In this document: positions 1,818 through 62,166 of the stretch, piece after piece
How positions within the stretch are numbered: position 1 is the first letter of the stretch
Layout: each line of letters starts with the position of its first letter
Source of the DNA: Armatimonadota bacterium
GTDB lineage: Bacteria; Armatimonadota; Fimbriimonadia; Fimbriimonadales; Fimbriimonadaceae
Assembly: GCA_016223145.1 (NCBI GenBank)
Contig: JACRPN010000014.1
Coordinates: 124,001-188,000 of the forward strand
Direction of reading: 5' to 3'
Length of the DNA: 64,000 bases
Position numbers and translations under genes: made by a program
Notes under the pieces: generated by a model
What the model was told of the DNA's origin: nothing
Database searches by the model: none
Seen by the model: the letters and a program-made list of their open reading frames with translations, nothing else

Positions 1818-2092
1818 GGGGGCATTGAAGAGATGAGGTGATGGTGGGATAAAGAGATGATGGGAGGGAGGGCTGAGGACCACTCCCCGCCCAGGAGAGG
1901 GTCTGTGAGCGCTAGCGAACCAATAATCCCGATGAAGTCGGGACTGGGTGAAGGCTTCCTTTGCGCCTTTGCGGGAGATCCCTAGGGATGGGCCGTCTAT
2001 AGCTCGCTCCGGAGTCTCCACCCCCAACCCCCTCCTCACTTACGAACCAAAACGAGGAGGGGGCTAATCGGCCAGACCCGTGGACCGGGGGA
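1818..2092. repeat. Intergenic repeats: family B copy and family A palindrome
   Basis: The gap between two convergent genes is filled with repeat sequence. Around 1879-1922 lies a family B copy, recognised by GTGAGCGCTAGCGAACC. At 2007-2065 lies a family A copy: the box CTCCGGAGTCTCC, then a perfect 10-base inverted repeat (CCCCCTCCTC at 2028-2037, GAGGAGGGGG at 2054-2063) around a 16-base loop. Bases 2041-2065 recur identically at 39395-39419. The palindrome could act as a transcription end for both genes, but no T-run follows. Confidence 0.8.
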
Positions 2093-2701
2093 TTACGCCC
2101 CGTCCTTCTTGTCTTTCTTCTTCATGGGCTCGCCCTTCATCTTTTCGAAGGCCGCGCGCTGCTCATCGGTCAAGAGCTTCTCGATCTTCTTTCCGGTCGC
2201 GACCTGAACCGCCTTGGCCGCTTTCTGCGTCGACTCATCGTGCGCGCCTGAGCTGAACACACCGTGCATCTCGTCAGCGCCAACCTCGAGGGCGCGTTCG
2301 ACATCCTTGCGCTGCTTGTCGGTGAGCTTGAGCTGTTTGGCAATCTCGTCGTCAGCGACCGCGATCCCTCCGAGAACCTGGATCCAGCACTCGGTCAGGC
2401 GCTTGATCTGGGCGGCATCGAGGACCTTCATCGCCGCCTTTTCCATGCCCGCCATGTCTTCGCCGCCGTGCATCGTCACCATGATGCGATCGCCCTCGAT
2501 GGTTAAGGCGCCTTCAAAACAGTCCACGATCTTCTGTGACTGGGCTGGGGTCAGCTTGATCTCAGCCCTGATCTCCGGCCCAAGGGCATAGAATATCTTC
2601 TTGCCGAGCATCATCTCGCGGGCCGGGGGCTCCTGAGCGATCGCCGGAAGCGCGCAGAGCAGGACGAAAAGAGTAAGCAGAGATTGAAGGGGTCGCTTCA
2701 T
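2093..2701 (-). CDS. Exported LTxxQ-motif protein (Spy/CpxP-like)
   Basis: A 202-residue protein with a clear signal peptide (MKRPLQSLLTLFVLLCALPAIAQ). The mature part is helical and charged, with LTPAQ, LTDKQ and LTDEQ motifs spaced along it and a lysine-rich tail (KKKDKKDG). LTxxQ motifs mark the Spy/CpxP/heavy-metal-resistor group of periplasmic chaperones and sensors, so a periplasmic protein-protection or metal-related role is possible but not shown. The start at 2701 is chosen because the signal peptide begins there; the frame is open further upstream. It is divergent from the acyl-CoA dehydrogenase, with about 150 bases for promoters. Confidence 0.75.
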   Translation of the reverse strand: MKRPLQSLLTLFVLLCALPAIAQEPPAREMMLGKKIFYALGPEIRAEIKLTPAQSQKIVDCFEGALTIEGDRIMVTMHGGEDMAGMEKAAMKVLDAAQIKRLTECWIQVLGGIAVADDEIAKQLKLTDKQRKDVERALEVGADEMHGVFSSGAHDESTQKAAKAVQVATGKKIEKLLTDEQRAAFEKMKGEPMKKKDKKDGA

Positions 2702-2853
2702 GGCTGGGGATACCTGGATAGGTCCGGTCGAAGTTCCCAGGCGGAACGAGCCGGGACTTTCGGACCTTTGGCCGAGGCCTTTGAAGAGCAGTCCGAGCTG
2801 ACCCAAGAGCGCTCTCAAAGCCGAAGACCCGCTCCCCAAAGTACACTCTGGGC

Positions 2854-4041
2854 ATGGATTTCTCCCTCACAGCCGAGCACGAGCTGATCCGCGAATCGGC
2901 GCAGAAGTTTGCACAGACCGTCATCGTCCCCGGCATCAGGGAGCGGGACCGCGAGGCCAAAGCCGACCCGTCGTTCCTCAAGGAGCTTGGCAGATCGGGT
3001 CTTGCCGGGGTGAGCATCCCCGCCAAATACGGCGGGACCGACACAGATTACATCTCGCTGGGCATCGTGTGTGAGGAGCTGGAGCGCGGCGACAGCACGG
3101 CGCGCGTGGTCATGAGCGTTCACAGCGGCCTTCACTCCATGACGATCCTGCAATGGGGCACCGAAGAGCAGAAGCACCGCTGGCTGCCGGCGCTTGCATC
3201 GGGCGAAAAGATTGGCGCCTTCGGGCTCACCGAGCCGAACGTGGGTTCCGACGCGATCAACATCACTACCCGAGTGAGGCCAGACGGATCCGACTTCATC
3301 CTGAACGGCGAGAAGACCTGGATCAGCTTGGCGGACTTCGCCGACCAGTTCCTCGTCGTTGGTGTGATCGAGGATTCCAAGCCCAAGCAGCATGTGGCGT
3401 TCATCGTGGACCGCACCCTGCAAGGGTTCTCCAGCCGCCCAATTCACGGCAAGCTGGGCGTTCGGGCCGGAAATACGGGCAGCATCTTTTTCGATAACGT
3501 TCGCGTGCCAAAGGAGAACATGCTCGGCGAGATCGGCGACGGGTTCAAGATCGCGATGTCGGCCCTGGACCACGGCCGCTACACGGTTGCCAGCGGGGCC
3601 GTCGGCATCATCCAGGCCTGTCTGGACGCCTGCATCCCTTATTGCCACGACCGTAAGGTGAGCGGGGAGGAGATCGGGCGAAAGCAGCTTGTGCAGCAGA
3701 TGATCGCTTCGATGGTGCAGGGCCGGGAGATCGGCAGGTTGCTTTATTACAAGGTCGGTTGGCTCAAGAATCAGGGGATTCGGCACACGAAGGAGGTCTC
3801 GCTCGCGAAGTGGACGAACTGTGCGGCGGCGTTCGACGCTGCGCACAAGGCGATCGAGGTTCACGGGGCCTATGGGTATTGCGACGAATTCCCGGTGGAG
3901 CGTTACTTCCGGAACAGCCGCGGCGCGATGATCTATGAAGGCACTCACGAGATCCATACGCTGATGCAGGCGGAGTACGAGCTGGGATACCGCGAGGACC
4001 GCCCCCTCCGGCACAGTCTGCCGGCGTGGCCCGTGAAGTAA
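2854..4041 (+). CDS. Acyl-CoA dehydrogenase
   Basis: A 395-residue FAD enzyme of normal family length that oxidises an acyl-CoA thioester to the 2-enoyl-CoA and passes electrons to ETF. It has the N-terminal helical domain, the middle beta-domain signature AFGLTEPNVGSDA (about residues 125-137) and the C-terminal helical domain. The C-terminal signature IYEGTHEIH (about residue 361) carries the Glu that serves as catalytic base in medium- and short-chain enzymes. The chain-length or branched substrate cannot be read from sequence. It stands alone, so no beta-oxidation operon helps to define the substrate. Confidence 0.93.
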   Translation: MDFSLTAEHELIRESAQKFAQTVIVPGIRERDREAKADPSFLKELGRSGLAGVSIPAKYGGTDTDYISLGIVCEELERGDSTARVVMSVHSGLHSMTILQWGTEEQKHRWLPALASGEKIGAFGLTEPNVGSDAINITTRVRPDGSDFILNGEKTWISLADFADQFLVVGVIEDSKPKQHVAFIVDRTLQGFSSRPIHGKLGVRAGNTGSIFFDNVRVPKENMLGEIGDGFKIAMSALDHGRYTVASGAVGIIQACLDACIPYCHDRKVSGEEIGRKQLVQQMIASMVQGREIGRLLYYKVGWLKNQGIRHTKEVSLAKWTNCAAAFDAAHKAIEVHGAYGYCDEFPVERYFRNSRGAMIYEGTHEIHTLMQAEYELGYREDRPLRHSLPAWPVK

Positions 4042-4346
4042 TGGCAGCAGAATTACCGCACCATCCGCAACACGCCTGATTTGGGCCGCCAGGCTCACCG
4101 GCGCAGGCACGGAACCTGCGGCTACGGACGGCAAACTCAATTGTAACTCTGATGAACGCAGACACGGAACCTGCGGCCACGGGTTCACATAGCTACCGGC
4201 TGTCTTGGCTACGGTGTCTGGTGGCAGCAGAGGGATGATCTTGGAGGCCCAAAGGGCCGTTGGGTGGAATCTAGGGGCAACGCTCTGGCTGGTGGCGCGC
4301 CTAAGAATCACGAGCCATGGAAGGGCAGCAATCCGGCTAGTCGTTC
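4042..4346. repeat. Gap with two direct copies of repeat family C
   Basis: This 305-base gap between convergent genes contains no convincing gene. It holds two near-identical direct copies of a 22-25-base word, at 4103-4127 and 4158-4183, with the core ACGGAACCTGCGGC. A diverged copy lies inside the S9 peptidase gene at about 45631-45657. In one reverse frame the word reads VAAGSVPA, the same peptide found in the S9 protein. The rest of the gap shows nothing recognisable. Confidence 0.65.
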
Positions 4347-4811
4347 TTAATCCGTACCGGACCGGTCGTCTCCAAATGGAACGGGCAGGAACCGGCTGAA
4401 CAGCCGGGGCCTGATGATGACCGCTGTCTGGACAATAGTCATCCCCACTGCGACGCCGAATACGATCCGATAGTACTGGGAGTCTCCCGGAGAGGTGAAT
4501 CTGGGTGGAACAGCAACTAGGGCGACCGCCAGGAAAGCAAAAGCTGATTGCACTCGCTCCCACTGGCCCCATGCCGCCATGCCCGCCAATGTGAGAAGAA
4601 GCACGATATTGGTGATGATGATCGTGATTTGAAGCCAGACCGGGATTCCAGACCCTTTGGCCGCTGCGACGAACTCATCCGGATAGTGGCGCACGGCGAC
4701 CCAAGAGCTCGAGCAGGCGAATCCCCCGGGCAGAAGGACCATCACAATTCGCGCAATGGCATCTCCTGTCCGAGTCTTGAGAAGGTCCTTGTTCCAAATG
4801 GAGCTCCTCAT
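4347..4811 (-). CDS. Small integral membrane protein, unknown function
   Basis: A 154-residue protein with about four hydrophobic segments (around residues 17-40, 55-77, 84-102 and 112-133) and a basic C-terminus. I do not recognise the family. Hydrophobic-helix periodicity and the absence of a better ORF on the other strand support it as real. It is transcribed away from the next small gene on the plus strand. Confidence 0.6.
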   Translation of the reverse strand: MRSSIWNKDLLKTRTGDAIARIVMVLLPGGFACSSSWVAVRHYPDEFVAAAKGSGIPVWLQITIIITNIVLLLTLAGMAAWGQWERVQSAFAFLAVALVAVPPRFTSPGDSQYYRIVFGVAVGMTIVQTAVIIRPRLFSRFLPVPFGDDRSGTD

Positions 4812-4897
4812 CGTACTTTGACTTTACCCTTGTGGCGGGCACAGACCTCAATATTGGCTCCGCTAACGTTTGGTGTACCTTCGTGCGTCTAAAGGGC

Positions 4898-6869: not shown

Positions 6870-7172
6870 ATGCTCGATCGCTACTGCACGCCCGCGATGA
6901 CCGCGCTTTGGAGCCGCCAGGCCAAGTATCAGCGGTGGCTGGAGGTCGAGTTGGCGATCTGCCGGGCTTGGGCCGCTGCCGGTGTGATTCCCGAAGCTGA
7001 TCTGAAGGCGATTGATGCCAGGTCCGCCTTCGATCTGGCGCGGTGCGACGAGATCGAGAAGGAGACGCGCCACGATCTCGCGGCGTTCGTGAGGAATCTC
7101 GAGGAGAGCGTGAACCGGCCGGATCTCCCTCCCCAACCCCTCCCTCATCAATCCCAGAGGCTTGACGAGTGA
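6870..7172 (+). CDS. purB: Adenylosuccinate lyase, N-terminal fragment (gene interrupted by repeat)
   Basis: One hundred codons. The first about 81 match the start of bacterial PurB closely (MLDRYCTPAMTALW, SFDLARCDEIEKETRHD, FVRNLEESV). PurB cleaves SAICAR and adenylosuccinate in purine synthesis. After ESV the frame runs into a family A repeat and ends at a TGA (7170-7172). The second half, from GRWIHFGVTS onwards, continues in the same frame at 7239. Either this is a broken gene, or two polypeptides are made that assemble, or the stop is misread. No frameshift is involved. Start ATG 6870 is divergent from the epimerase-like gene. Confidence 0.85.
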   Translation: MLDRYCTPAMTALWSRQAKYQRWLEVELAICRAWAAAGVIPEADLKAIDARSAFDLARCDEIEKETRHDLAAFVRNLEESVNRPDLPPQPLPHQSQRLDE

Positions 7173-7238
7173 GGGACTCCGGAGTCTCCCTCCCCAACCC
7201 CTCCCTCATTTTCGCTTCACAAAAACGAGGGAGGGGCT
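7119..7238. repeat. Family A palindromic repeat inserted in purB
   Basis: A 24-base word (CTCCCTCCCCAACCCCTCCC plus TCAT) occurs twice, at 7125-7148 and 7186-7209. The second copy belongs to a full family A element (CTCCGGAGTCTCC box at 7176-7188) with a perfect 10-base inverted repeat, CCCCTCCCTC at 7198-7207 and GAGGGAGGGG at 7227-7236. The element separates two otherwise contiguous parts of purB and contains the in-frame TGA at 7170. Confidence 0.9.
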
Positions 7239-20908: not shown

Positions 20909-23900
20909 CCAGCGATGCGGCTCCGGGCCGAGGGCCCTCGCGAAGGGGATAGGCCTCCTTGTTTCTGACCCAGCTCCAAAGGGTGGCGAGTCTGGCCGCT
21001 TGGTCGGCACGGGGCATGAACGCGTGGGTCGGAGCCTGCCCGCTGAAGCCGTCCTCCCACTTCTCCAGCCCGTCCAGCCCCACGACGCCGGTGACTCCAG
21101 GCTCCAGAAGATTGGCAAAGAGGGCAACTTGCGATCCGGTCGCCCCCTGGCCGGCCACAACCACCTTCTGGCCCTGTGCCACAAGATGTTTTGCGGCAAC
21201 GGCGGCGTCCCATCCCATCGCGAAGGCGTCGGCGGTGCCGAGATAGGTCATGAGCCGTGGGTCCAGCCCCTGAAGCTCGCCAAAGCCGCGAACGTCGATC
21301 GCGAGGCAGGCGTAGCCCTCCTTGAGCATCGAGGGCACGTCGAACTCCCGCCCGGCCGCGGCCTTGCCACCCTCGCTGATTAGAACCACGGTGGCCTTGG
21401 GCTGGCCCGCCGGCTTCCAGAGGATGCCAGGAATGGTCAAGCCGGCTTCTGATTGGTAGGTTACATAGGACTTATTCGACCCATCGATTGGCTTCTCGCT
21501 CCAGTTCAATGGGCAGGCGGTGGGCGTTCCGCCGTTCAGCTTCAAAACCTCTTCCCATGTGTGGTCCCTGGCGCGCTTCAGGTTCTGGAGCGCGACGTCG
21601 CGTTGGGTGATCGCCCTGTCGGGCGTCCTGCCGCCAAGTACCTGAGTCTCTGGGCTGCTGTCGGGCTCATTCTTGAACGCGGGCCTAGGGACGGGCGAGC
21701 CGTCGCCGACCCCCTTCAGATGCTTGTCAAAGAACCCCATCGCAAGTTCTTGCATGGCCTGGTTGTAGTCGTGCCCGCCGGGGAAAACCTTCCACTGGGC
21801 GTCGTCTTCCTTGCCGAAGAGCTTCCAGATCGCCCGCAGCTTCTCGCCGGTCTTCTGCGTACCTGCAGGCGGGAATTCGGTGTCGACGGTCGCGCCGATC
21901 ACGAGCACGGGGTTGGGTGCGCGGATCGCCAAGATGTCGCTGCGGTCGCCCACTTGCAGGGTCCCCGGAACGTGGTTGCACAGGCATCCGTTGTGCGGGT
22001 TGACCTCCAGACTCGTGGCATAGACCACGGGCACGGCGACCTTGATGCGGTCGTCGGCAGCAAAGGTGTAGAGCGTCGCCAGCCCGCCGCCCGAGGCGCC
22101 GGTGATGCCGACCTTGTTCGTGTCGCACTCGGGCCGGGTCTCCAGATAGTCCAGTCCGCGCATCGCATCCCAGGCGTAGAGGGCGGTGGTGTTCGCCGAG
22201 CCGAGCATCAGCGACCAGTCGTTGTGCTGCCCCTGCCATCGGCGCTCGATCGGCGCGTCGTCGGCTTCGAAGCTGTGCCCCGGCGTGTCGATGCAGAGCG
22301 CGACGTAGCCGCGCAGCGCCTGGAAGATACAGCGGTCCTGAACGACGCCGGTCTGCTTTTTCACGGGCCAATGTCCGTGGACGTCGAGGATGACGGGAAA
22401 TGTTTGGGAGTGCGCGAGCTTGCTCGCGCTTTCACTTTCATTTTCCTCAGCCGCAGAAGGAAAAGCGCGAGCAAGCTCGCGCACTCCCAAAGACGCTCCC
22501 AAAGGCTCTGGCACATACAACAACCCCGTCACGAAGAACCCCGGGCGGCTCTCATAGACCAGCTTCTCGACCCGATAGCCGGGCCGATGGAAGACGCCTG
22601 TGATCTTTGCGTTCAGCGGCGTGCGCGGGGGCAGAGGGTCGAGCCCCATCATGCGCATGAACTCCTTGCGGTCCACGGGGCGGCGTTGCCCGACTTCGGC
22701 GACGGACTTCGGCAAAGGACGCGCGGCGGCGGCCTTGACTTTGGCCTCGAGGAAGTTCTTCATGATGTCGGGGCCCTTGCCGCCGAGCACGGCGTCGTCC
22801 GAAACGGCGCCGGGGATGATCTTGTTGGAGTTCATGCCTTGTTCCTTGGCGATGACCTCGCCGAGCGTGAGGAAGGGGAGGTCGTGCGCGTTCATGAAGT
22901 CGGGGATGACTGAGGTCGCGTAAGTGGCGTTCTCGGTGCCGGTGTCGATGAGGATGGCGGGCCTTCTCATTTCGGATTTCGGATTTCGGATTGTGGATTG
23001 GGGATTGCGGATTGGGGCGGTCTGTTGAAGCAGCGCCAGCAGAGCCTTTGCCGCGTTCGGGATGTGCATCCGCTGGATGATCCGGGCCTGGACCATCCAG
23101 ATGGTGCCCTTGCCATAGCGTAGGCTGGCGACTCCGCCGTTGCCGAAGACCTTCCAGGCTTTGTCCGAGGGGTCTGACTTGTCGGACCTGTCCGACTGGG
23201 CCGACGGCGCGCCACCCCCAACGATAGGCTGAGAAAGGATCTCTGCCGTCTCTACCTTCGGCATGCCGAGCGCTCCCTGTGGGTCGAACACCGCGCTGGC
23301 ACGATTCTCTAGCCTTGGTTTGATGGGGAAGTAATCCGACCTATAGCGGCCCGAAACGAAATCCTGCTGCATAACGAGCAGGTTCATGCCCTTGTCGACG
23401 GCCGTGAGGAGTTTGCGCTGGGTGGCCGTGTCGAAACGGTTGAAGTCGCCTGCGCGGAACGCCACGACCAGCCAGCCGTATTTGCTGGGGTCGAGGATCT
23501 TGGGATCGAGATAGGCCATCGCCTCCTCGCTGGAGTAGATCGTCGGCGTCTGCTTGGGGAGGGAAGGGACGGTGAGGTAGGGCTGCTCCTTTTGCCACCA
23601 GGGAATGCGGCGGACCGTGCCGTTTTTCATCTCAACCTCCGCGGCGACGCAGTGCCCCCAGACCTCCCGCTTGAAGGTGGCAACGAACTTGTCGCCTTGC
23701 CGAACCATCGGGGACTTGTGAAAAAAGGTCGAGGAGGGAAGGGGTTTCTCCAAGAGCCAGGCTTGGTTAAGGCCGGTGGCCAGAATAGAGACCTTCACCT
23801 CGGAATCGAACACGGCGACTTTGAGGGAGGTCGGCGGCATTGCCGATGGGCCCGCTACGGCTGCCATCCCGCCCTGTGGAAGCCCTCTTGCCAGGTCTGA

Positions 23901-26042
23901 CAGACTCTTGGCGGCTCCTTGAACCGAGGCGAGCTGGGAACTCCAGGCATATGCATGCGTGCCCATTCGAAGGCGGTCGGTAAATGGCTTGTAAAAGGGC
24001 TCTTCAGAGATCGCTTCCCAAGCCTTGGTCATCTCCTTCGAGGCTTGAGAGAGTTGCTGTCCAATCGCGGGATTCTTAAGTCCGGCTTCAAGTTGAGCAA
24101 CAGCATCTGCACCCATGAAACGAGACCCGTAGTAATTGGCGAACGCCTTCAATTGCTCGACGGCGACTAGGATCTCCGCCGCTTGTAGATTCTTGGCTGC
24201 CGACTCCTTCCATCGGGCCGGGAAGCCGTCGTTTACGGCAAAGAGGACCGGCGAATGGAACATGAAGGCTAATGTGTCTTGCCAAGCCGAGCGGCCGTCC
24301 TTTCCTCCGGTCCACCTGTAGGCGAGGTTCTCGGCAGGGGTTTTGAAAGCGTGCTCATCGAACGGACCGTTGACGATATACGAGCCCGTATCCCCTCCCC
24401 ACTCCAACTCCGGAGCGTGGTTGCGATGGTCCGGACCAAGACTGTACGCCATGTACGCCGTCGGGATGACCTTGCTGGCCGATTTCCAGGCTTCCGCCAA
24501 GGGCTTGCCGACCTTCGCCCCGAACTTCCGCTCGATCATCTTGTCGAACTTCCATTCGGGCACCGTCGGGTCGTAGCCCAGCCGTCCCCAACAGGCCATG
24601 TACATCTCGTTGCGCTGGTGCAGCCACCGGTAGCCTGCTTTGCTCGGGTCCTTCATGTAATAGGCAGGCGACTGCGGGAAATACGCCCCAACCGGCTCGA
24701 CCGTATAGCCACTCGTGGTGCCGACCTTCATGCTCAGGATTGAGCGCCGCGTCCACTCGGGCTGATAGAACGGGAAGATGCGGTGCGTGCCGTCTGCACG
24801 GACCTGCCAGACGATTTTGTAGGGCTGGCTGGGCCAGCGGGAGAGGTTCTCAGGTTGTCTGGTTTTCGGGTTTTGGGGCGCTGCGGAGTTCCTCGTGTCT
24901 CCGGTCAAGCTCCGAGCACCTGAATACCTTGCCACCTGGCCACCCTCCCCGGGATTCCCCGGCCACATCCGCGCCCCCTCCGGCCCGGAATACGAAAGAT
25001 AATCCTCCCAGAAGTAGCTGTACCAATTGGCAACCCGGCCGCCCTGCATGATGTACGGCGCGCCCCACTGCTCGCCGTTGTATTTGATCTCGACGGTGAA
25101 GTCCTTGCTCGCCCGCGCCAGCGGCACCACGCGCGCCTTGCGCGTCACCCAACTTCGGGTGTAAAGCGGGATCTCACGCCCGCTGTCCTTTACGGCTTCT
25201 CCATAACACTTGAAGAACTCCGCCCCGCGCCCACTCTCCCCTACGCGGTAGCCGATCTTATCGAGCTCCGGGACCTCCCGAATCATCTTGGAGACGACCT
25301 CGCGCGTGTAGTCGTAAACCTCCTTCTCGGTGCCCGCATAACCGGGGCGTGGGTTGGTCGGGATGTCGAACCGAGCCTCATAGCTCATGAGGCTGACCTT
25401 GATGCCGTGTTCATGCGCCAGCTTGATGATCCAGCGCAGCCGGTTCAGCAGGATCTTCTTGCTCTCCGGCGCAACGCCGACGTTCGGAAACTTGTCGCTC
25501 TGGATGAAGTAGGCGTAGAGGTTGGGGAAGCGCGTCGTGTCCAGATCGTACGGGCCGTGGATGTCCAGCCAGTTCAGCCGCGCCCAGGCCATCTGCCTGA
25601 AGAGCGTCTGCCAATAGTCGTCGTCCATGAAGAACCAGCGTTTGGGGTCGATCAGCGCGGCGGGATCGGAGTCGTTCCGGTTGTTCGCGTAGTCCCAAGG
25701 CAAGGGAAGGAAGAGGTTTAGGCCCCTGTCCACCAGGTAAGGGTTACCTATTGCCGTGCCCTTTGCGAGGGCCTTGTCGCCGGCGTTCTGAACCCGCTCC
25801 GCTAGCTCCAGATACCCGTACATCACGCCGTTTGCGTCGCCGCCGACGACGGAGACTTTCTTGCCGTCGGAGGTGATCCGATAGCGCTCGACACCAACCT
25901 TTGGGTCCACCTTCGCAGTCACGTTTGAAACACGGCTGCTGAGACCCGCGGACTGCAGGACGCGGCTGAACTCCTGATAGCCGAAGGTGATGGGGCTGGG
26001 TGGGGAAGCGAATGCGACGCCGAAAAGCAGTGCCGTAAGCAT
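20886..26042 (-). CDS. Exported 1718-residue glycosidase-esterase fusion
   Basis: A signal peptide (MLTALLFGVAFASPP) fixes the start. Residues about 20-620 resemble alpha-glucuronidase/GH20-type enzymes: VERYRITSDGKKVSVVGGD, GVMYGYLELAE, then a TIM-barrel region (DRGLNLFLPLPWDY, WARLNWLDIHGPYD, HGIKVSLMSYE). Residues about 800-1030 form a beta-rich linking region. About 1040-1450 is an acetyl-xylan-esterase-like alpha/beta hydrolase with nucleophile GASGGG (about 1316) and His in PGGHDYNQ (about 1422). A second hydrolase-like domain closes the chain (GQGATGSQ, about 1639), apparently without a proper nucleophile. This suggests combined removal of glucuronosyl and acetyl groups from hemicellulose. 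Four low-complexity repeat segments lie in frame: about residues 380-400, 945-963, 1007-1024 and 1185-1213. Confidence 0.8.
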   Translation of the reverse strand: MLTALLFGVAFASPPSPITFGYQEFSRVLQSAGLSSRVSNVTAKVDPKVGVERYRITSDGKKVSVVGGDANGVMYGYLELAERVQNAGDKALAKGTAIGNPYLVDRGLNLFLPLPWDYANNRNDSDPAALIDPKRWFFMDDDYWQTLFRQMAWARLNWLDIHGPYDLDTTRFPNLYAYFIQSDKFPNVGVAPESKKILLNRLRWIIKLAHEHGIKVSLMSYEARFDIPTNPRPGYAGTEKEVYDYTREVVSKMIREVPELDKIGYRVGESGRGAEFFKCYGEAVKDSGREIPLYTRSWVTRKARVVPLARASKDFTVEIKYNGEQWGAPYIMQGGRVANWYSYFWEDYLSYSGPEGARMWPGNPGEGGQVARYSGARSLTGDTRNSAAPQNPKTRQPENLSRWPSQPYKIVWQVRADGTHRIFPFYQPEWTRRSILSMKVGTTSGYTVEPVGAYFPQSPAYYMKDPSKAGYRWLHQRNEMYMACWGRLGYDPTVPEWKFDKMIERKFGAKVGKPLAEAWKSASKVIPTAYMAYSLGPDHRNHAPELEWGGDTGSYIVNGPFDEHAFKTPAENLAYRWTGGKDGRSAWQDTLAFMFHSPVLFAVNDGFPARWKESAAKNLQAAEILVAVEQLKAFANYYGSRFMGADAVAQLEAGLKNPAIGQQLSQASKEMTKAWEAISEEPFYKPFTDRLRMGTHAYAWSSQLASVQGAAKSLSDLARGLPQGGMAAVAGPSAMPPTSLKVAVFDSEVKVSILATGLNQAWLLEKPLPSSTFFHKSPMVRQGDKFVATFKREVWGHCVAAEVEMKNGTVRRIPWWQKEQPYLTVPSLPKQTPTIYSSEEAMAYLDPKILDPSKYGWLVVAFRAGDFNRFDTATQRKLLTAVDKGMNLLVMQQDFVSGRYRSDYFPIKPRLENRASAVFDPQGALGMPKVETAEILSQPIVGGGAPSAQSDRSDKSDPSDKAWKVFGNGGVASLRYGKGTIWMVQARIIQRMHIPNAAKALLALLQQTAPIRNPQSTIRNPKSEMRRPAILIDTGTENATYATSVIPDFMNAHDLPFLTLGEVIAKEQGMNSNKIIPGAVSDDAVLGGKGPDIMKNFLEAKVKAAAARPLPKSVAEVGQRRPVDRKEFMRMMGLDPLPPRTPLNAKITGVFHRPGYRVEKLVYESRPGFFVTGLLYVPEPLGASLGVRELARAFPSAAEENESESASKLAHSQTFPVILDVHGHWPVKKQTGVVQDRCIFQALRGYVALCIDTPGHSFEADDAPIERRWQGQHNDWSLMLGSANTTALYAWDAMRGLDYLETRPECDTNKVGITGASGGGLATLYTFAADDRIKVAVPVVYATSLEVNPHNGCLCNHVPGTLQVGDRSDILAIRAPNPVLVIGATVDTEFPPAGTQKTGEKLRAIWKLFGKEDDAQWKVFPGGHDYNQAMQELAMGFFDKHLKGVGDGSPVPRPAFKNEPDSSPETQVLGGRTPDRAITQRDVALQNLKRARDHTWEEVLKLNGGTPTACPLNWSEKPIDGSNKSYVTYQSEAGLTIPGILWKPAGQPKATVVLISEGGKAAAGREFDVPSMLKEGYACLAIDVRGFGELQGLDPRLMTYLGTADAFAMGWDAAVAAKHLVAQGQKVVVAGQGATGSQVALFANLLEPGVTGVVGLDGLEKWEDGFSGQAPTHAFMPRADQAARLATLWSWVRNKEAYPLREGPRPGAASLVKIVLSR
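22404..22490. repeat. Perfect 27-base inverted repeat in coding sequence
   Basis: Arms at 22404-22430 and 22464-22490 are exact reverse complements over 27 bases, with a 33-base loop. Each arm contains the palindrome GCGCGAGCTTGCTCGCGC. The 87-base element equals 29 codons and inserts an Ala/Ser/Glu-rich stretch into the esterase domain just before the strand TFPVILDVHGHW. Confidence 0.93.
22970..23020. repeat. Heptamer array AATCCGA in the glycosidase-esterase gene
   Basis: About seven tandem 7-base units on the minus strand (AATCCGC, AATCCCC, AATCCAC, AATCCGA three times), translated as IRNPQSTIRNPKSEM. It is the same class of unit as in purB and at 35355. Confidence 0.85.
23160..23205. 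repeat. Nonamer array (YTGTCSGAC) in the glycosidase-esterase gene
   Basis: Five tandem 9-base units encode the acidic-basic peptide SDRSDKSDPSDK. A related array lies in the UroD-family gene at 47465-47500. Confidence 0.75.
24846..24905. repeat. Octamer array (AACCTGAG-like) in the glycosidase-esterase gene
   Basis: On the minus strand, units such as AAAACCCG, AAAACCAG, ACAACCTG and AGAACCTC encode APQNPKTRQPENL within the catalytic part. The same octamer type is found in the phenylalanine hydroxylase gene. Confidence 0.7.
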
Positions 26043-35606: not shown

Positions 35607-36335
35607 TCAGGGATAATCGCCCGTCGGGATTTCCTTGACCACGATCTGCGGTGTTTGTGCGCCTGCGCCGCCCTCGACGCCCATCACGTACACCAGATAC
35701 ATCTTTCCCGTGCCGAACGCGAAGCTAACAAGCGACACAAACACATCGTCCGAACCGGCGCGCCGGGCGTCGAAGCTGTGGGTTCCTGAGTCGATCGTCA
35801 GCACGCTGCTTGCGCCGAACTCGATGTTGGCCGCCTTGTATTGGGGGTTCTGCCCAGGGGATTGGAAGTCGATGTTGGGGGTCAGAAATCCCGTCGCGCG
35901 GCTAAACCCGTGGAAGATTACGAGCCTCGACTTGTTGCCCTGGATCGTGTGTCGGTCCACTTCGGTGGCCGTCAGCCGAAGACGCTTCTCAAACTCCGTA
36001 CCGAACGTCACGAGCCCGAGCGCCGAGATGACATAGTGCTTGTTGCGGGCAAAGGTCTGAAGGATCGCGTCGTAATCGGTGGTTGTGCCCGTCGCGTTGG
36101 CGATGAGGTCCCTGGCGACGGGATCGGTTGCCATAAAGTCCGTTCCAGCCGCCGAAGCGACCGCGTTGCCGGAGAGCACGCTGTCGATGTAGAAGTCGAT
36201 CCCGGCGTTATCGGGGCCTGCATTGAAAAACATCACTTGGGGCTTTGGTAGCGCGGTCGTGCCGCCCCCGCCGCCACAGCCGGACAGCGCGAGCGCGGCC
36301 ACACATCCCAACAACATTCCAGTGATTCGAAGCAT
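35607..36335 (-). CDS. Lipoprotein, DUF4397-like
   Basis: 242 residues with a lipoprotein signal (MLLGCVAALALSGCGGGGG). The sequence MFFNAGPDNAGIDFYIDSV resembles DUF4397 repeats (hASPDAPxVDVYVDG), which form beta-sandwiches at the cell surface. A second half (LVIFHGFSRATGFLTPNIDF) may be a further copy. Function unknown. ATG 36335 has GGAG six bases upstream. The stop codon abuts the heptamer array. Confidence 0.75.
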   Translation of the reverse strand: MLRITGMLLGCVAALALSGCGGGGGTTALPKPQVMFFNAGPDNAGIDFYIDSVLSGNAVASAAGTDFMATDPVARDLIANATGTTTDYDAILQTFARNKHYVISALGLVTFGTEFEKRLRLTATEVDRHTIQGNKSRLVIFHGFSRATGFLTPNIDFQSPGQNPQYKAANIEFGASSVLTIDSGTHSFDARRAGSDDVFVSLVSFAFGTGKMYLVYVMGVEGGAGAQTPQIVVKEIPTGDYP

Positions 36336-43501: not shown

Positions 43502-45868
43502 TCACCCCTTCCCCCACCACTTCAAGATGAACTGCAGGTAGATCTGGTGGCGGTCGTGGTTCGACATATCGCCGCCCATCCCGTGGCCACCGGTCGGGTC
43601 GAGCGCCAGCTCCACCAGCGGCCCCTTGCCGTACTGCAGCAGCTTTTGATACACGTGAACCGTGTCCTGGAAGAGCACGTTCGTATCCTCGATGCCGTGC
43701 AGCAGCAGCAGCGGCCCTTTCAAGTTCTTTGCCAGCTTGGTGAGGCTGAACTTGTCAGTGTCTTCCGACTTGCCGTCACGGGTGTTCGTGATGACCGCGC
43801 CCGTGTACCAGGTGTTGTAGTTCTGCCACTCCGTGGGTCCTGCGCCGGCGATGCCCAGCGTGAATACATCCGGGGCGGTGTACATACACATCTGCGTCTG
43901 GAAGCCACCGAACGACCAGCCGTTGATCCCCACCTTCTTCGTGTCGATGTTGTAGGTCATCTGAAGGTGCTTCACACAGTCTGTCAAGTCTTCAGTTTGC
44001 GGCACGCCGGGCTTGTCAAAGTTCGCCATGCCGAAGGCGTTGCCATAGCCCGATTGGCCGCGCGGGTCGATCGTGCAGGTTACATAGCCGAGGGTGTAGG
44101 TCAAGTACATCGCGAAGATGTAGGCGGTCGAATTGAACGCGCCATCCATAACGGAGTAGCCCGTTCCGAGAGGTCCGCCGTAGACGTACATGAACAGCGG
44201 GCGCGGCTTCGACTTGTCGAAGCCTGGAGGCAGCATCACGTACCCATGGACGGTCTGACCGTTCCGGTTCTTGAAGGTGAAAAGCTCGGGCTTGACCTTG
44301 TTGACCGCGTTCCAGGCGTCGTAGCGGTGCGAGGAAGTCAGCTTCGTTTCAGACGTCCGTTTGTCCCTCTGTCTCTCCGTCCCTATCACGTAGGTCTCGT
44401 TCGGGCTCGACCAGTTGGCGAAGGTCAAAGCGGCCTTGGTGCCGTCCTTGCTCACCTTTGGGCGGCCGTAGTTTCCTGTCTGAGTGGTCCATTTGGTGAG
44501 TGCGCCGGTGGCCATGTCGGCTCGATAGACCTGCATGCGCGCGGGGTCTTCGGCTCCTGCATAGCAGATGAGCTGCTTGCCATCGGGGGTGAGCTGGACA
44601 GGATAAAGGTCGAAATCGCCCTTGGTCACCTGGGTGGCGAGGTTGGTGAGCAGGCTGATCTTCCAAGCCTGCCGGTAGCCGCTCTTGTCCAAGAGGCAAA
44701 CCACTTCCTCGCCGGAAGGCGCAAAGAACGGGTTGCAGAGCCCCGGCGAATCGTGGTCGCCGTCGTCCTTGTCCTTGTAGGCGATCGAGGTCTTCTTCTC
44801 CTTCAGGTCTGCCACCACGATCTGCAGGTCGTTGGCATCGCGCTTCCAACCAGCAAAGACGAACTTGGTGGAGTCCTTGGAAAAGGGGTTTTCGCTGATA
44901 GAGACCTCCCACCAATCCTCACCGCCGGGCCATTTCCAGACTTCCCAGGGCTTGCCGTCACCCTTGGCGTTCTCCATGGCGTCGTCCGAGATATCGTAGA
45001 GGAAGAGGTAGCTTTCTTCAGCGAACTTGTCATCCGCGACGTTCCGGCTGGTCTTTTGCGCCTGCGCGAAGCGGCCCTTGTAGCTGATCCAGTCCACCTG
45101 CCGCTCGCTCCCAAGCGTCTTGCCGGCCTGCACCATCATCTTGGTTCCGTCGGGAGAGATCCGGTAGCCGGCAAAAGTCAGGCCGGTTGGCAGCGCCGGG
45201 TTAAGCTGCTCGGTCACCGCGCTGTCGAAATTGACACGGTAAACGCCATCGCCCCGGCGGAAGGTGAAGCCATCATCGTTCGGAGTGAACTCGACATTGG
45301 ATTCCGAGTCGCGCGTCCGCGTGAGCCGCACAGGGCGCTCAGCGCCCAATCGCCACCGATAGATGTCGCCCTTGAACACCATCAGGAACTCGTTGCTTTT
45401 GTGCGCCCACTCCACTTCGCTGATGCCCGGATAGCTGGGCAGCGGCTCCTTGCGCTTGGCGGCTTCTTCCTTCTGGTTCTGGACCCACTCCCGCCACTCC
45501 ATGTCGCCCATCTTGTCGGCTTTGTCCTCGTCCTCGACGTCCTTCTTGTAGCGCTCGATCGCCTTGGCGATGTCTCGATCGTAGGGCTTCATGAACTCCA
45601 TCGAGGTCATGCGGCGGGGGTTGGCTGACGCCGGCACGGAGCCGGCGGCTACGGGCTTCGAGGTGTCGTAGAGGTAGAGGTCCAGCCCTCCCTTCACCTC
45701 ATAGGGGTTCCAGAAATAGGCCAGGTAGCGGCCGTCGCTGGACCATGTCAGGCCAGATGCAGTCTTTCCCCAGAAGGACTTTCTGGGAAAGCAGTCGTCG
45801 AACTTGAGGTCCGAGTCGATCTGAGGGATCTGGTTCAGAAGAAACGCGGCGGCAAGAAGGGTGACCAT
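43502..45868 (-). CDS. S9-family exported prolyl-oligopeptidase-like peptidase
   Basis: 788 residues with a signal peptide (MVTLLAAAFLLNQIPQ), an N-terminal beta-propeller (residues about 30-510) and a C-terminal alpha/beta-hydrolase domain. The catalytic triad is visible: Ser in GWSFGGFQ (about 652), Asp in HGIEDTNV (about 724) and His in TGGHGMGG (about 759). It resembles DPP IV-type enzymes removing dipeptides. Two repeat-derived segments lie in the propeller: KPVAAGSVPASANP (family C, about residues 70-79) and IGTERQRDKRTSETK (octamer array, about residues 490-505). Confidence 0.92.
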   Translation of the reverse strand: MVTLLAAAFLLNQIPQIDSDLKFDDCFPRKSFWGKTASGLTWSSDGRYLAYFWNPYEVKGGLDLYLYDTSKPVAAGSVPASANPRRMTSMEFMKPYDRDIAKAIERYKKDVEDEDKADKMGDMEWREWVQNQKEEAAKRKEPLPSYPGISEVEWAHKSNEFLMVFKGDIYRWRLGAERPVRLTRTRDSESNVEFTPNDDGFTFRRGDGVYRVNFDSAVTEQLNPALPTGLTFAGYRISPDGTKMMVQAGKTLGSERQVDWISYKGRFAQAQKTSRNVADDKFAEESYLFLYDISDDAMENAKGDGKPWEVWKWPGGEDWWEVSISENPFSKDSTKFVFAGWKRDANDLQIVVADLKEKKTSIAYKDKDDGDHDSPGLCNPFFAPSGEEVVCLLDKSGYRQAWKISLLTNLATQVTKGDFDLYPVQLTPDGKQLICYAGAEDPARMQVYRADMATGALTKWTTQTGNYGRPKVSKDGTKAALTFANWSSPNETYVIGTERQRDKRTSETKLTSSHRYDAWNAVNKVKPELFTFKNRNGQTVHGYVMLPPGFDKSKPRPLFMYVYGGPLGTGYSVMDGAFNSTAYIFAMYLTYTLGYVTCTIDPRGQSGYGNAFGMANFDKPGVPQTEDLTDCVKHLQMTYNIDTKKVGINGWSFGGFQTQMCMYTAPDVFTLGIAGAGPTEWQNYNTWYTGAVITNTRDGKSEDTDKFSLTKLAKNLKGPLLLLHGIEDTNVLFQDTVHVYQKLLQYGKGPLVELALDPTGGHGMGGDMSNHDRHQIYLQFILKWWGKG
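44352..44392. repeat. Octamer array (CTCCGTCC-like) in the S9 peptidase gene
   Basis: Four tandem units (CGTTTGTCC, CTCTGTCT, CTCCGTCC, CTATCACG) of the same octamer class as the gap arrays at 13195-13297 and 54345-54380. They encode a charged loop between propeller strands and keep the frame. Confidence 0.75.
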
Positions 45869-46821: not shown

Positions 46822-47835
46822 CTACGCTCGCAAACACGCCAACGAGAGAGCTCGCAGGTTCTTTGGCGGTGTAGAGGGAGTGATTTCACATCCCGCGCTG
46901 ATGATGCACCGGCTCCCGGCTTCGGCTTGGCACTTCCGCGCTTCCGATTGGATCCTCTCCGGCGTTCCGTTCTGCACCACGGACACGGGGTCCACCGAGC
47001 CACAGAGGACCTGGTTGGTGGCCAGCAGCCTTGCAGCCGGCGCCATGGACCCCGCCAAATGGTCCACGTCGACGATGTCTGCGCCTGTGGCCACCATGTC
47101 CGGCAGGATCTGGGAAGTGTTTCCGCAGATGTGCAGCTTTGCGAGCGCGCCGCAGGCATGAATGTGTTCGATGATCTCACGCTCTCCTTCCCAAAAGTAC
47201 TTGCGGTAGTGCTCCGGGCTGATCTGCGAGCAGACTGCATCCCCCATCCCAATGGCATCGGCTCCAGCCGCTATTTGAGCTTCGGCAAAGCGCATTGCAA
47301 AGTCCACGGCGGTCCGAACGGCGGCCCAGACGGCGTCGGGATGGTCGTAGAGGTCGAGACAGGCTTCGCTTAGGCCGCGGAATAGCGAGACCATAGCGAA
47401 GGGCCCCTCGACCCAGCCCACGACGAACTGCTCTGGGGCTCTTTGCCTGAAAAGCTCCACTTGCCGGACTCGTCCGAGCAGTCGGACCTGTCGGAGGTTT
47501 TGCGGAGCCGCCACTGACAGAAGCTCTGCCGCAGTGGAGACCAAGGGACGTTCGTTTCTGGGCAGGTCGTCCTCCGGGTAGTCCACCGCCAGCCCGTAGG
47601 CCTCGGCCTCACAGTAAGGGTCGGACATCACGCTGACCCAGTCCATGCCAAAGTCCTCGGCAGTTCTGATTACGGCATCGACGTGGGCTTCGGGCGATAG
47701 GCAGAAATCGCGGTACTTCACCCCCGCGTGGCGCGCTGCGAAGCGCATGACGATGGGGTGAAAGGGAAGCCGGTTGACGGGGCGGCCGTTGAGGAAGGCC
47801 AGCGTTCGGTCCTTGGAACTCAGCGTCTTGCTCAT
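46822..47835 (-). CDS. UroD-family methyltransferase (MtaA/CmuA-like)
   Basis: 337 residues of the uroporphyrinogen decarboxylase fold. The zinc-binding motif of corrinoid-linked methyltransferases is present: KLHICGNT (His-x-Cys) with the second Cys in IISAGCEI. The Arg-rich substrate motif of true UroD at the N-terminus is missing. It therefore most likely transfers methyl groups from a corrinoid protein; the donor is unknown and no corrinoid protein gene is near. A nonamer repeat covers residues about 112-124 (QVRLLGRVRQV). Confidence 0.88.
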   Translation of the reverse strand: MSKTLSSKDRTLAFLNGRPVNRLPFHPIVMRFAARHAGVKYRDFCLSPEAHVDAVIRTAEDFGMDWVSVMSDPYCEAEAYGLAVDYPEDDLPRNERPLVSTAAELLSVAAPQNLRQVRLLGRVRQVELFRQRAPEQFVVGWVEGPFAMVSLFRGLSEACLDLYDHPDAVWAAVRTAVDFAMRFAEAQIAAGADAIGMGDAVCSQISPEHYRKYFWEGEREIIEHIHACGALAKLHICGNTSQILPDMVATGADIVDVDHLAGSMAPAARLLATNQVLCGSVDPVSVVQNGTPERIQSEARKCQAEAGSRCIISAGCEITPSTPPKNLRALSLACLRA

Positions 47836-49408: not shown

Positions 49409-49451
49409 AGGAGCATAGTTCGATGGGAAGTGAGGAAAGTCCTGCTTGGTG

Positions 49452-49620
49452 GGCATTTAGGCATTGGGGGCGTTGGGGCATTGGGGGTTCTTGGGAAGGG
49501 CGAAATGTAGCCCCCTCCTTGGTTTTGCGCAGCGAAACTGAGGAGGGGGTTGGGGGTGGAGACCCGTCCAGCCTTCCCAATGCACCAGTGCCCAATGTCC
49601 CAATTCCCAGGATCCTTCGC
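49452..49620. repeat. Family A repeat (reverse) flanked by complementary GCATTGGGG-type arrays
   Basis: At 49511-49563 a family A copy lies in reverse orientation, with CCCCCTCCTT / GAGGAGGGGG arms and GGGGGTGGAGACC as the box. Left of it is GCATTGGGG-type tandem sequence (49452-49500), and right of it the complement (CCCAATG, 49573-49618). The whole gap can therefore fold on itself. Confidence 0.8.
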
Positions 49621-54223: not shown

Positions 54224-54540
54224 CGCCCTAACGAGGTGTCTCGCCATTCGGCGTCCCCGTGAAACGCCGAATGGCCTTATCTCGGCACTACAAGCTTTCT
54301 CATCGATACCCCGCCACAGGCCAAAGACCTTCGGCCACGGTTCCGCGTCCCTGCGTTCCTTTGTCCCTCGGTCCCTCCAACGCGCCTCTTGCAGGATTTT
54401 GGGATCGCTCGTAGACCGCATCTCAAGAGCCGCATGGGGCCCAAAGGGCCGAAAGAAGACAGCTTAGAGCAACGCGCGAATTCAGAAGCGCCTTCTCGAC
54501 TTATGGACCTGTATCCCGAGGCTACCGGCGGGATCGAACG
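54224..54540. terminator. Terminator hairpin (54243-54275) and octamer array
   Basis: Right after the propeller gene a 12-base stem (GCCATTCGGCGT / ACGCCGAATGGC, 9-base loop) forms a probable terminator. At 54345-54380 an octamer array (CCTTTGTCC, CTCGGTCC) of the class found at 13195-13297 follows. The remainder of this 317-base gap shows nothing. Confidence 0.75.
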
Positions 54541-57436: not shown

Positions 57437-57665
57437 TCCTTCCGCGAGAAGCGATAGGCGAGAAGCGAAGAAGCGAGAAGCGAAAGGCGAGAAGCGGAGA
57501 GGCGAAAGGCGAGAAGCGAAGGGCGAGGGGCGAGTGTCGGAAGACTGATGTCGAATGTCGTATGACGAATGACGAATGACGGATGAGGTAACAGAACCCC
57601 ATATCCTACACCTCACGCCTCAGACCTCGGACCTCAGACCTCACACCTCAGACCTCAGACCTGCC
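57437..57665. repeat. Three successive tandem heptamer arrays between frr and uppS
   Basis: At 57437-57530 about thirteen units of GCGAGAA type, at 57540-57596 units of ATGACGA type, and at 57605-57662 units of CCTCAGA type. The last repeats the unit of the array at 35440-35612. Nothing else lies in this 248-base gap except the uppS ribosome-binding site. Confidence 0.9.
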
Positions 57666-61749: not shown

Positions 61750-61750
61750 C

Positions 61751-61797
61751 CTCGTGGCCCAGGCTATAGGGCTCGCTCAGGCGGGCCGGGCCACGAG
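61751..61797. terminator. Hairpin after the small membrane ORF
   Basis: A 10-base stem (CTCGTGGCCC / GGGCCACGAG) around 27 bases that can fold further. It lacks a T-run. It probably ends the kdsB transcript. Confidence 0.65.
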
Positions 61798-61812
61798 CAC
61801 AACAGACGGAAA

Positions 61813-62079
61813 ATGACGCCATCATCGGAGCCTGAAGACCTCTGCATTCGGGTTGCCATCCTGCTAGGAAACCGCAATCGATACCGGGCACGGTTCGACG
61901 CCGAGACATTGATCGGGTTCTATCGCTACTTTGACTTCCCGAAAGATGAGGTCGTACGGGCCTTCGGCGATTACGCTCCCAATGTAGTAGAGAAAGGGTG
62001 GAGGGTCATTTCGGAGTACTTCGGAGATGGCGGCGCTGGCGTCGCAGCGATGTTGAAGCCACCCAAGAGATGGCTGTGA
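61813..62079 (+). CDS. Hypothetical protein
   Basis: 88 residues. RVAILLGNRNRYRARFDAETLIGFYRYFDFPKDEVVRAF and the C-terminal KPPKRWL give a helical basic-acidic protein, possibly nucleic-acid binding. No family recognised. ATG 61813 follows GACGGAAA. Tandem CGCCCGT heptamers lie between it and rel. Confidence 0.55.
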   Translation: MTPSSEPEDLCIRVAILLGNRNRYRARFDAETLIGFYRYFDFPKDEVVRAFGDYAPNVVEKGWRVISEYFGDGGAGVAAMLKPPKRWL

Positions 62080-62136
62080 CAGAATCCGACGCTTCTCTTC
62101 AGCCGCATTGAACCTACGATATACTGAATCACCGCT

Positions 62137-62166
62137 CATCGCCCGTCGCCCGTCGCCCGTCGCTTC
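62137..62166. repeat. CGCCCGT heptamer array just before rel
   Basis: Three to four tandem 7-base units end 9 bases before the rel ATG, where a ribosome-binding site would be expected; none other is visible. Confidence 0.75.

What the first reader, a model, noticed from the sequence alone, without database searches (positions are those of the whole stretch)
1818..62166. Window-wide system of tandem 7-10-base repeats that recur in gaps and inside genes
At least fourteen short arrays with unit lengths of 7, 8, 9 or 10 bases are visible. The same units recur far apart: AATCTGA/AATCCGA (7346, 22970, 35355), CCTCAGA (35440, 57605), CTTCGTCC octamer (12892, 13195, 44352, 54345), AACCTGA octamer (24846, 33246), CTGTCGGAC nonamer (23160, 47465). 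Units differ yet obey the same length rule. Cyanobacterial STRR heptamers are the nearest known parallel. I infer an active process that makes or spreads such arrays.
Basis: partly seen in the sequence, partly recalled or inferred. Interest (0 to 1): 0.82.

Follow-up and report, generated by a model that had tools for sequence, protein, structure and literature searches.

The report
Lineage-specific burst of 7-8-base repeats
This bacterial genome is peppered, in its gaps and even inside genes, with short stretches of DNA in which a 5-6-letter word recurs every 7 or 8 letters; most relatives examined lack them, so some process has been writing them in this lineage, of a kind seen in other bacteria but not explained.

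Summary
Nine window arrays of period 7 or 8 score at least 14; 40 order-3 Markov sequences gave none. It is genome-wide: 864 kb of this genome hold 124 arrays, 96 of period 7, 8, 14 or 16; 770 kb from 22 relatives hold 13 such, 11 of them in two genomes. (GTCCCTNN)x3 has 194 matches here, none in 60 relatives. Arrays favour gaps, but also sit in in-frame insertions: 27 aa in a biopterin-dependent hydroxylase, 51+16 aa in a biotin carboxylase. Each family repeats a 5-6-nt core with 1-2 free bases; variable positions coincide across loci in 9 of 11 families, which simulated slippage rarely reproduces. One permuted control word for each of two real words was at least as common in viral contigs, so words look arbitrary, although one is shared with a family member. 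No reverse transcriptase was found; MutS is present. I read this as a lineage-specific insertional process, probably template re-copying through a short core match; that step is inferred. It is a new variant of the known, unexplained bacterial heptamer arrays; Geobacter metallireducens is the closest described parallel found.

The parts
7347..7378 (+). heptamer array AATCTGA/AATCTCA inside purB, in frame, with no length change relative to the orthologues aligned
7120..7250 (+). family-B hairpin repeat inserted in purB; two copies of a CTCCCTCCCCAACCCCTCCCTCAT word; holds an in-frame TGA
12912..12982 (-). octamer array GTCCCTNN (reads GGGACNNA on +) upstream of purD
13104..13141 (+). octamer array GTCCCTNN, inverted partner of 12912-12982
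13222..13298 (+). octamer array GTCCCTNN
22969..23014 (+). heptamer array GGATTNN inside the long ORF 20886-26042(-), encoding IRNPQSTIRNPKSE
23163..23198 (+). nonamer array GTCSGACNN-type inside the same ORF, encoding SDRSDKSDPSDK
   Evidence: by eye, below the chance threshold
24845..24878 (-). degenerate octamer array of the ACCTGANN family inside the same ORF
   Evidence: by eye
33206..33286 (-). 27-aa in-frame insertion in the biopterin-dependent hydroxylase gene: inverted octamer arrays TCAGGTNN x5 / ACCTGANN x3 that fold as a hairpin (DNA, -25 kcal/mol, z -5.85 for 33205-33290)
35162..35195 (+). decamer array GTGAGGGTGA
35363..35389 (+). heptamer array CAGATTT (rc AAATCTG)
35434..35610 (+). 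heptamer array GACCTCR, about 25 units, the longest in the window
44362..44384 (+). short GTCCCTNN octamer array
47463..47497 (+). nonamer array of the GTCSGACNN type
   Evidence: by eye, below the chance threshold
49451..49487 (+). octamer array GGCATTNN; with 49575-49609 (inverted) it brackets a family-B-like hairpin (by eye)
49575..49609 (-). inverted partner of 49451-49487
54347..54378 (+). GTCCCTNN octamer array with mismatches
   Evidence: by eye
57444..57534 (+). heptamer array GCGARRR in the frr-uppS gap
57548..57586 (+). heptamer array CGAATGA in the frr-uppS gap
57610..57662 (+). heptamer array GACCTCR in the frr-uppS gap
62129..62163 (+). heptamer array CCGTCGC just before the ORF called at 62175

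Best explanation
The arrays are the product of a lineage-specific, genome-wide burst of insertional array formation. Tracts of roughly 20-200 bp made of 7- or 8-base units were added to gaps and, where the reading frame survived, to loops of proteins. SHOWN: they are absent at the orthologous sites compared in most cases; the pitch is 7 or 8; most families keep a 5-6-nt core and leave 1-2 bases free; a minority occur as inverted pairs, one of which folds as a hairpin; the words look largely arbitrary and mostly differ between genomes. INFERRED: during replication or repair a stalled 3' end re-pairs, on the same strand (slippage) or folded back on itself (giving inverted pairs), through the 5-6-nt core and is extended by one pitch of 7-8 nt. 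Only units with an intact core can be re-copied, so the core is kept while the spacer drifts. A minority may start at hairpin repeats, near which arrays are enriched. Spread of one word to many loci is inferred from its recurrence and is the least explained step. Function: none shown; most arrays are probably tolerated by-products.
For: Insertion relative to orthologues: frr-uppS gap 248 bp here, 5 bp in G001/G002; hydroxylase +27 aa: all 34 other genomes with a match align on both sides and leave this stretch unmatched, and 29 of 29 orthologues read lack it; biotin carboxylase +51 and +16 aa; fumarase +17, three unannotated genes +44, +31/+12 and +12/+11 (1-2 orthologues each). Lineage limits. 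Pitch: 64 of period 7 and 22 of period 8 among 124; G019 24 of period 7 among 39. Core/spacer: per-position counts; rotation test p<=0.011 in 9 of 11 families, uncorrected; in simulated slippage 0 of 30 families in five settings and 1 of 30 in a sixth. Inverted partner within 250 bp for 17 of 135 arrays vs 1 and 0 for two control words. Near hairpin families A/B: 14 of 77 intergenic arrays vs 3.8 +- 1.7 random. Words not special: one permuted word for each of two gave 31 and 77 stretches vs 18 and 65. MutS is present; loops of 7-8 nt are larger than those MutS repairs well (recalled).
Against: Spacers of three octamer families show no lag-1 excess (GTCCCT, ACCTGA, CTCACC), which re-copying of neighbours should produce; GGCATT shows a weak one (10 vs 7.2, p=0.069). 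In purB and a class II aminoacyl-tRNA synthetase the array brings no length change. Re-pairing alone does not explain one core at many loci: GTCCCTNN arrays at different loci share no unit order. Spacer composition is family-specific. G019 shows no inverted-partner excess (1 vs 2 and 0 controls) and shares the word GGATTNN above chance (6 of 30 arrays vs 1.0 expected), so the words are not wholly private. Two relatives without detected arrays in that gap also have long frr-uppS gaps (140 and 528 bp). No polymerase or repair gene has been tied to the trait.
Confidence: 0.45

Rival explanations
1. Arrays of binding sites for sequence-specific DNA- or RNA-binding factors: each core is a site repeated at a fixed pitch with a free spacer, kept by selection (the reading given by the Geobacter metallireducens authors for similar arrays).
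For: Core conserved and spacer free at the same positions across loci (chi-square agrees but its counts are not independent); the same core at many loci without shared unit order; simulated neutral slippage rarely gives this pattern. Some families are uneven by orientation: GCGARRR 1 same vs 6 opposite in same-direction gaps, GACCTCR 11 same vs 3 opposite inside ORFs, the latter perhaps because its reverse strand contains TGA.
Against: Pooled over the 12 largest families there is no orientation bias in same-direction gaps (29 same, 24 opposite); gap types used roughly in proportion to their length (51:14:10 arrays vs 99:39:30 kb); insertion inside enzyme genes; several unrelated cores in one genome; (GTCCCTNN)x3 in none of 60 relatives; control words as common elsewhere.
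Confidence: 0.22
2. Miniature mobile elements: arrays are the arms or subterminal transposase sites of small hairpin elements, similar to Rickettsia palindromic elements or MITEs, including in-frame insertions.
For: The hydroxylase insertion is a hairpin of inverted octamer arrays; inverted partners exceed controls; two hairpin families A and B are nearly confined to this genome among the stretches examined and cluster with arrays; GGCATTNN arrays bracket a B-like hairpin at 49451-49609 (by eye); 12 Y1 transposase-family matches in this genome.
Against: Only 17 of 135 arrays have an inverted partner; GTCCCTNN arrays at different loci share no order; Y1 transposase number does not follow the trait (G019 has arrays and 2 matches; G006 has 9 and no 7/8 array in 20 kb); no target-site duplication was established.
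Confidence: 0.17
3. Plain polymerase slippage at chance seeds with neutral decay and no further rule.
For: Runs of identical neighbouring units in heptamer arrays (GACCTC lag-1 45 vs 38.9, p=0.011; GGCGA 13 vs 9.8, p=0.056; G019 arrays); GACCTC arrays share unit runs above shuffled order (20 vs 9.8 pairs); published suggestion that 7 nt matches the polymerase contact (passages of PMC4692102 and PMC4679880).
Against: Positional concentration of variation is rarely reproduced by simulation (six parameter settings, independent loci from one uniform unit); the same core at many loci; three octamer families without lag-1 excess; MutS present.
Confidence: 0.12
4. Reverse-transcriptase or RNA-templated writing of repeats, telomerase-like.
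For: Fixed core plus free spacer and fixed pitch; largely genome-specific words.
Against: No RVT_1 match in this genome at E<=0.001, while 7 of 37 genomes searched have one; spacer composition is family-specific.
Confidence: 0.03

Closest known systems
Geobacter metallireducens tandem octa-/heptanucleotide arrays (PMC2700814, passages and supplement captions seen)
   Same: Octamers with free positions (GTTGCTYN, TWGTTGAY) and heptamers (MTYCTGA, GGGACCG x49) in one genome; binding-site classes mostly in opposite-strand pairs; the GGGACCG family also inside genes
   Different: There two to five repeats per site, called putative regulator sites or elements, some with an insertion sequence at a fixed distance; here arrays of varied length, mostly unpaired, insertion shown against orthologues
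GGGNATC / GGGGA(T/C)T heptamer arrays of Xanthomonas and Nostoc (PMC4692102, passages seen)
   Same: Intergenic heptamer arrays with conserved and variable unit positions, length variable between relatives
   Different: One G-rich family per organism, read as quadruplex-forming; here many families, pitch 7 and 8, several without a GGG run
TAACTGA repeats of Beggiatoaceae (PMC4679880, passages seen)
   Same: Heptamer arrays in many gaps, patchy across taxa; in two Bacteroidetes the relatives' gaps are shorter and lack obvious repeats
   Different: One word; single-base variants rarely repeated in the main genome studied
Cyanobacterial STRR heptamers (recalled)
   Same: Species-specific tandem heptamers in noncoding DNA
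   Different: Octamers, core/spacer pattern and in-frame insertions are not part of the description I recall
Rickettsia palindromic elements (one passage of review PMC10969869 seen)
   Same: Short palindromic insertions, in frame, inside metabolic genes
   Different: RPEs are defined families of about 150 bp; here insertions are made of tandem 7/8-mers, mostly without a palindrome

Membership tests
Bacterial heptamer/long-SSR arrays (as surveyed in PMC6344855) | tandem unit of 7 nt (or 5-11) above chance | tested here: met
Bacterial heptamer/long-SSR arrays (as surveyed in PMC6344855) | mostly intergenic | tested here: met
   77 of 116 arrays in the 21% not called coding (own ORF caller)
Cyanobacterial STRR | carried by cyanobacteria | tested here: not met
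   UppS tree puts the window's clade outside the Cyanobacteriota rows; its phylum was not identified
Cyanobacterial STRR | heptamer units only (recalled) | tested here: not met
   22 period-8 arrays of 124
Geobacter-type putative regulator sites | tandem octamers/heptamers with degenerate positions | tested here: met
Geobacter-type putative regulator sites | mostly opposite-strand pairs | tested here: not met
   17 of 135
Geobacter-type putative regulator sites | bound by a regulator | not testable with these tools
   no binding data
Rickettsia palindromic elements / MITEs | inverted-repeat structure in most copies | tested here: not met
   for the arrays; met for the hydroxylase insertion; hairpin families A/B judged by eye
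Rickettsia palindromic elements / MITEs | in-frame insertion in genes | tested here: met
Rickettsia palindromic elements / MITEs | target-site duplication | not tested
   no closely similar empty site was at hand
G-quadruplex heptamer arrays | GGG or longer G-run in each unit | tested here: not met
   ACCTGANN, CTCACCNN, GACCTCR, GGATTNN and CGAWTGA families lack it

The most novel reading that the evidence does not exclude
Some bacteria possess a largely sequence-agnostic array-writing activity that fixes the pitch (7 or 8 nt) and a 5-6-nt core but not the word: each genome acquires its own, mostly arbitrary set of core words, and the activity lays them down anew at many loci with freely filled spacers. 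It would account for the widespread, unexplained heptamer arrays of prokaryotes.
Probability: 0.15. Interest if true: 0.85.

Novelty: new variant of a known kind. Interest (0 to 1): 0.58.

Why it matters
Tandem heptamers are reported as the most abundant periodic DNA repeats in gaps of a wide range of prokaryotes, with 'no clear clue' to function (PMC6344855, passage seen). This lineage offers a natural experiment: one genome crowded with several families of 7- and 8-mers, two genomes placed in the same genus with almost none in 200 kb each, and two family members (G015, G019) with mostly other words. The core-plus-spacer pattern and the in-frame insertions give testable constraints that plain slippage, as simulated here, does not meet, and they bear on how loops of conserved enzymes acquire new sequence.

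Tried and rejected
Shared vocabulary across organisms: (GTCCCTNN)x4, (ACCTGANN)x4 and (GGATTNN)x5 hit 18, 8 and 65 stretches of IMG/VR contigs and looked like a common dialect; a 27-base GACCTCA array hit none. One permuted word for each of two, CCTGCTNN and TGAGTNN, hit 31 and 77, and this genome's other words were not enriched in those pieces (0 vs 0.8, 0 vs 0.1, 2 vs 3.1 expected). Rejected for those collections; against it stands G019, where GGATTNN is above expectation (6 vs 1.0, maximum 5 in 200 shuffles).

Mismatch-repair loss: MutS_V matches in 17 of 17 genomes searched, this one included. Reverse transcriptase: no match in this genome. Y1 transposases: 12 in this genome but not following the trait. 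Copying of whole arrays between loci: no shared unit order for GTCCCTNN (0 pairs with >=3 identical consecutive units, 18 arrays; 0.1 expected) and near chance for ACCTGANN (1 vs 0.3, 9 arrays); GACCTCR shows an excess (20 vs 9.8, sd 3.5, 18 arrays), so copying or slippage remains possible there. Lone cores in gaps: CTCACC and GACCTC are about 2 sd above permuted hexamers, GTCCCT is below, ACCTGA and GGCATT are near; no consistent picture.

Contamination or chimaera: matches of two array words lie on at least 19 of the 23 contigs, and arrays lie inside genes with orthologues in relatives; not pursued further. Phylum: the only genome-contig scan gave no close named relative, and a UppS tree did not place the clade in a named phylum; Armatimonadota was only a guess from memory and is not claimed. 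The lag-1 Hamming distances are biased by the detection method and were not used. The control was uninformative (near-symmetric pattern).

Insertion count: 25 ORFs of the sample hold arrays; 9 were compared with orthologues because these were at hand. L145 was uninformative (the relative's stretch is cut) and is left out, giving 8. Some ORF calls may be false genes (L309:12065-12895, L317:14222-15409). In one search, 14 of 29 relatives' loci could be measured; 10 lay on the other strand and were not usable, 5 lacked an frr match.

Full report
Observation. Tandem Repeats Finder and a lag-match scan find the reported arrays. At score >=14 the window holds 6 arrays of period 7, 3 of period 8 and 1 of period 10; 40 order-3 Markov sequences gave no period-7 or period-8 array. 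The window is 64 kb of a 3.87-Mb genome in 23 contigs, 97% complete. The gene caller used below is my own script and misses or adds some genes.

Genome-wide. CCTCAGACCTCAGACCTCAG with up to 2 mismatches has 87 matches in the genome and 0 for the reversed control. (GTCCCTNN)x3 with up to 1 mismatch has 194 matches, overlapping ones counted (control 6), and none in 60 relatives: 2 of the same genus, 34 of the same family, 24 of the same order, some of them incomplete. In 864 kb of this genome (window plus 40 stretches of 20 kb) there are 124 arrays of period 4-40: 64 of period 7, 22 of 8, 4 of 14, 6 of 16, 2 of 9, 1 of 10, 2 of 6, 1 each of 4 and 5, and 21 of other periods from 15 to 39. In 770 kb of 22 relatives there are 25, of which 13 have period 7, 8, 14 or 16: 7 in 20 kb of G019, 4 in 9.9 kb of G015, 1 each in G014 and G001; the 20 relatives other than G001 and G002 were sampled there by one stretch of 10-20 kb each. 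A further 400 kb of G019 brought its total to 39 arrays in 420 kb, 24 of period 7 and 1 of period 8, with words such as GATNNCY and TTTAGAT. One word, GGATTNN, is shared between this genome and G019 above expectation (6 of 30 arrays vs 1.0). The trait is therefore patchy, and the words mostly differ. The two same-genus genomes are not close (UppS 67% identical), so the burst could lie anywhere on a long branch.

Where they lie. Of 116 arrays (score >=13; period 7, 8, 14 or 16), 77 are outside my gene calls, which cover 79% of the sequence. Gap types are used about in proportion to their length. In same-direction gaps orientation is even when the 12 largest families are pooled (29 same, 24 opposite), but uneven in some: GCGARRR 1 vs 6; and inside ORFs GACCTCR runs with the gene in 11 of 14, perhaps because its reverse strand contains TGA. 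frr and uppS are 248 bp apart here, with three arrays between them, and 5 bp apart in G001 and G002, by the start codons chosen. Of 14 relatives' loci that could be measured, 12 have gaps under 30 bp and two have 140 and 528 bp; no array was detected in those two gaps at score >=13.

Inside genes. The biopterin-dependent hydroxylase carries a 27-aa insertion. All 34 other genomes with a match align on both sides and leave it unmatched, and 29 of 29 orthologues read lack it. It is a hairpin: TCAGGTNN x5, then ACCTGANN x3 on the same strand; folded as DNA it reaches -25 kcal/mol against -10.3 for shuffles (z -5.85), largely core against core with small internal loops. The biotin carboxylase has 51- and 16-aa insertions holding heptamer arrays and a family-A hairpin; in most relatives with both halves aligned, residues from about 244 to 319 of the query are unmatched, though array-rich G015 has extra sequence of its own in that loop. 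Fumarase has +17 aa, and three genes that I did not annotate have +44, +31/+12 and +12/+11 aa (1-2 orthologues each). In a class II aminoacyl-tRNA synthetase and in purB the array adds no length. So 6 of 8 informative genes, out of 25 array-bearing ORFs, show insertion. Further arrays lie in genes with pyruvate:ferredoxin oxidoreductase, UbiD and urocanase domains, not compared with orthologues.

Grammar of the units. Families found without assuming a core show fixed and free positions: GTCCCTNN, ACCTGANN, CTCACCNN and GGCATTRR at pitch 8; GACCTCR, GGCGANR and GGATTNN at pitch 7. A rotation test that asks whether the variable positions coincide across arrays of a family gives p<=0.011, uncorrected, in 9 of 11 families (7 of 9 here, 2 of 2 in G019). 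Of families simulated under slippage plus substitution, 0 of 30 reach that in five settings and 1 of 30 in a sixth; the simulation assumes independent loci from one uniform unit, so shared descent of arrays is not excluded by it. Neighbouring spacers are no more alike than shuffled ones in three octamer families (GTCCCT 10 observed, 11.9 expected; ACCTGA 11 vs 10.2; CTCACC 4 vs 4.1) and in GGATT (3 vs 3.2), while GACCTC (45 vs 38.9, p=0.011), GGCGA (13 vs 9.8, p=0.056) and GGCATT (10 vs 7.2, p=0.069) lean to an excess (chains there are chosen by their core). GTCCCTNN arrays at different loci share no unit order; GACCTCR arrays do more than expected.

Associations. An inverted partner of the same word lies within 250 bp for 17 of 135 arrays, against 1 and 0 for reversed and complemented control words; in G019 there is no such excess. 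Two hairpin repeat families, A and B, have about 32 and 17 places in 864 kb, none in the stretches of G001, G002 or G003-G022, and one in the further G019 stretches. Of 77 intergenic arrays, 14 lie within 150 bp of A or B, against 3.8 +- 1.7 for random gap positions.

Other organisms. Among 80 named loci (1.26 Mb) 14 arrays of period 7 or 8 were found, nine of them in L129, an uncultured Bacteroidales with many words in 20 kb. Public viral contigs found through one array word hold further arrays, of which period 7 makes up 30 of 46 (GTCCCT-found), 52 of 138 (GGATT-found), 44 of 146 (TGAGT-found), 6 of 51 (CCTGCT-found) and 1 of 5 (ACCTGA-found). The words are not special there: one permuted word for each of two was at least as frequent.

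Mechanism. Absence at orthologous sites, insertion in genes, lineage limits and fixed pitch point to an insertional process. The core/spacer pattern suggests which bases must match; inverted pairs suggest that fold-back occurs. I therefore favour re-copying of a template through a 5-6-nt core. That step and the spread of one word to many loci are inferred. A binding-site reading explains the conserved core at least as well, but is disfavoured by the lack of pooled orientation bias, by insertion in enzymes and by largely arbitrary words. A mobile-element reading explains the hairpin insertion, but most arrays have no inverted partner.

Known or new. Heptamer arrays are known in many bacteria, without an agreed function or mechanism in the passages seen (PMC6344855, PMC4692102, PMC4679880). 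Geobacter metallireducens has octamers with degenerate positions in opposite-strand pairs (PMC2700814, passages and captions). My literature searches did not turn up a description of the core/spacer pattern tested across loci, or of heptamer or octamer arrays as in-frame insertions shown against orthologues; they cover open-access papers only, and I read passages, not whole papers.

Noticed in passing
window 6870-8255 (+), insertion 7120-7250: The one close purB orthologue found in this genome carries a family-B hairpin insertion with an in-frame TGA between its N-terminal part and the rest, both in the same frame. Whether it is split, read through or broken is open.
   Followed up: partly
genome-wide, e.g. 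L308:4731-5029, L320:9895-10026, window 7124-7251: Two hairpin repeat families, nearly confined to this genome among the stretches examined: A (CCCCTCACCCGGTTCGCT...CTCTCCCC...GGGGCGAGGTG) and B (CTCCCTCCCCAACCCCTCCCT...AGGGAGGGGCTCC), in gaps and in some genes.
   Followed up: partly
L129 (CAMHOY010000007.1, uncultured Bacteroidales): Nine arrays of period 7 or 8 with many different words in 20 kb, an independent array-rich genome.
   Followed up: no
L353 (G015), biotin carboxylase gene: Array-rich G015 has extra repetitive-looking sequence in the same loop where this genome carries its insertion.
   Followed up: no
L374:2003-2122 and L382:1-75 (IMG/VR pieces): Long, nearly perfect GTCCCT octamer arrays in contigs classed as viral; whether virus or host DNA is unknown.
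   Followed up: no
window 34929-35092 (-): tRNA-Thr(GGT) and tRNA-Tyr(GTA) close beside the decamer and the long heptamer array.
   Followed up: no
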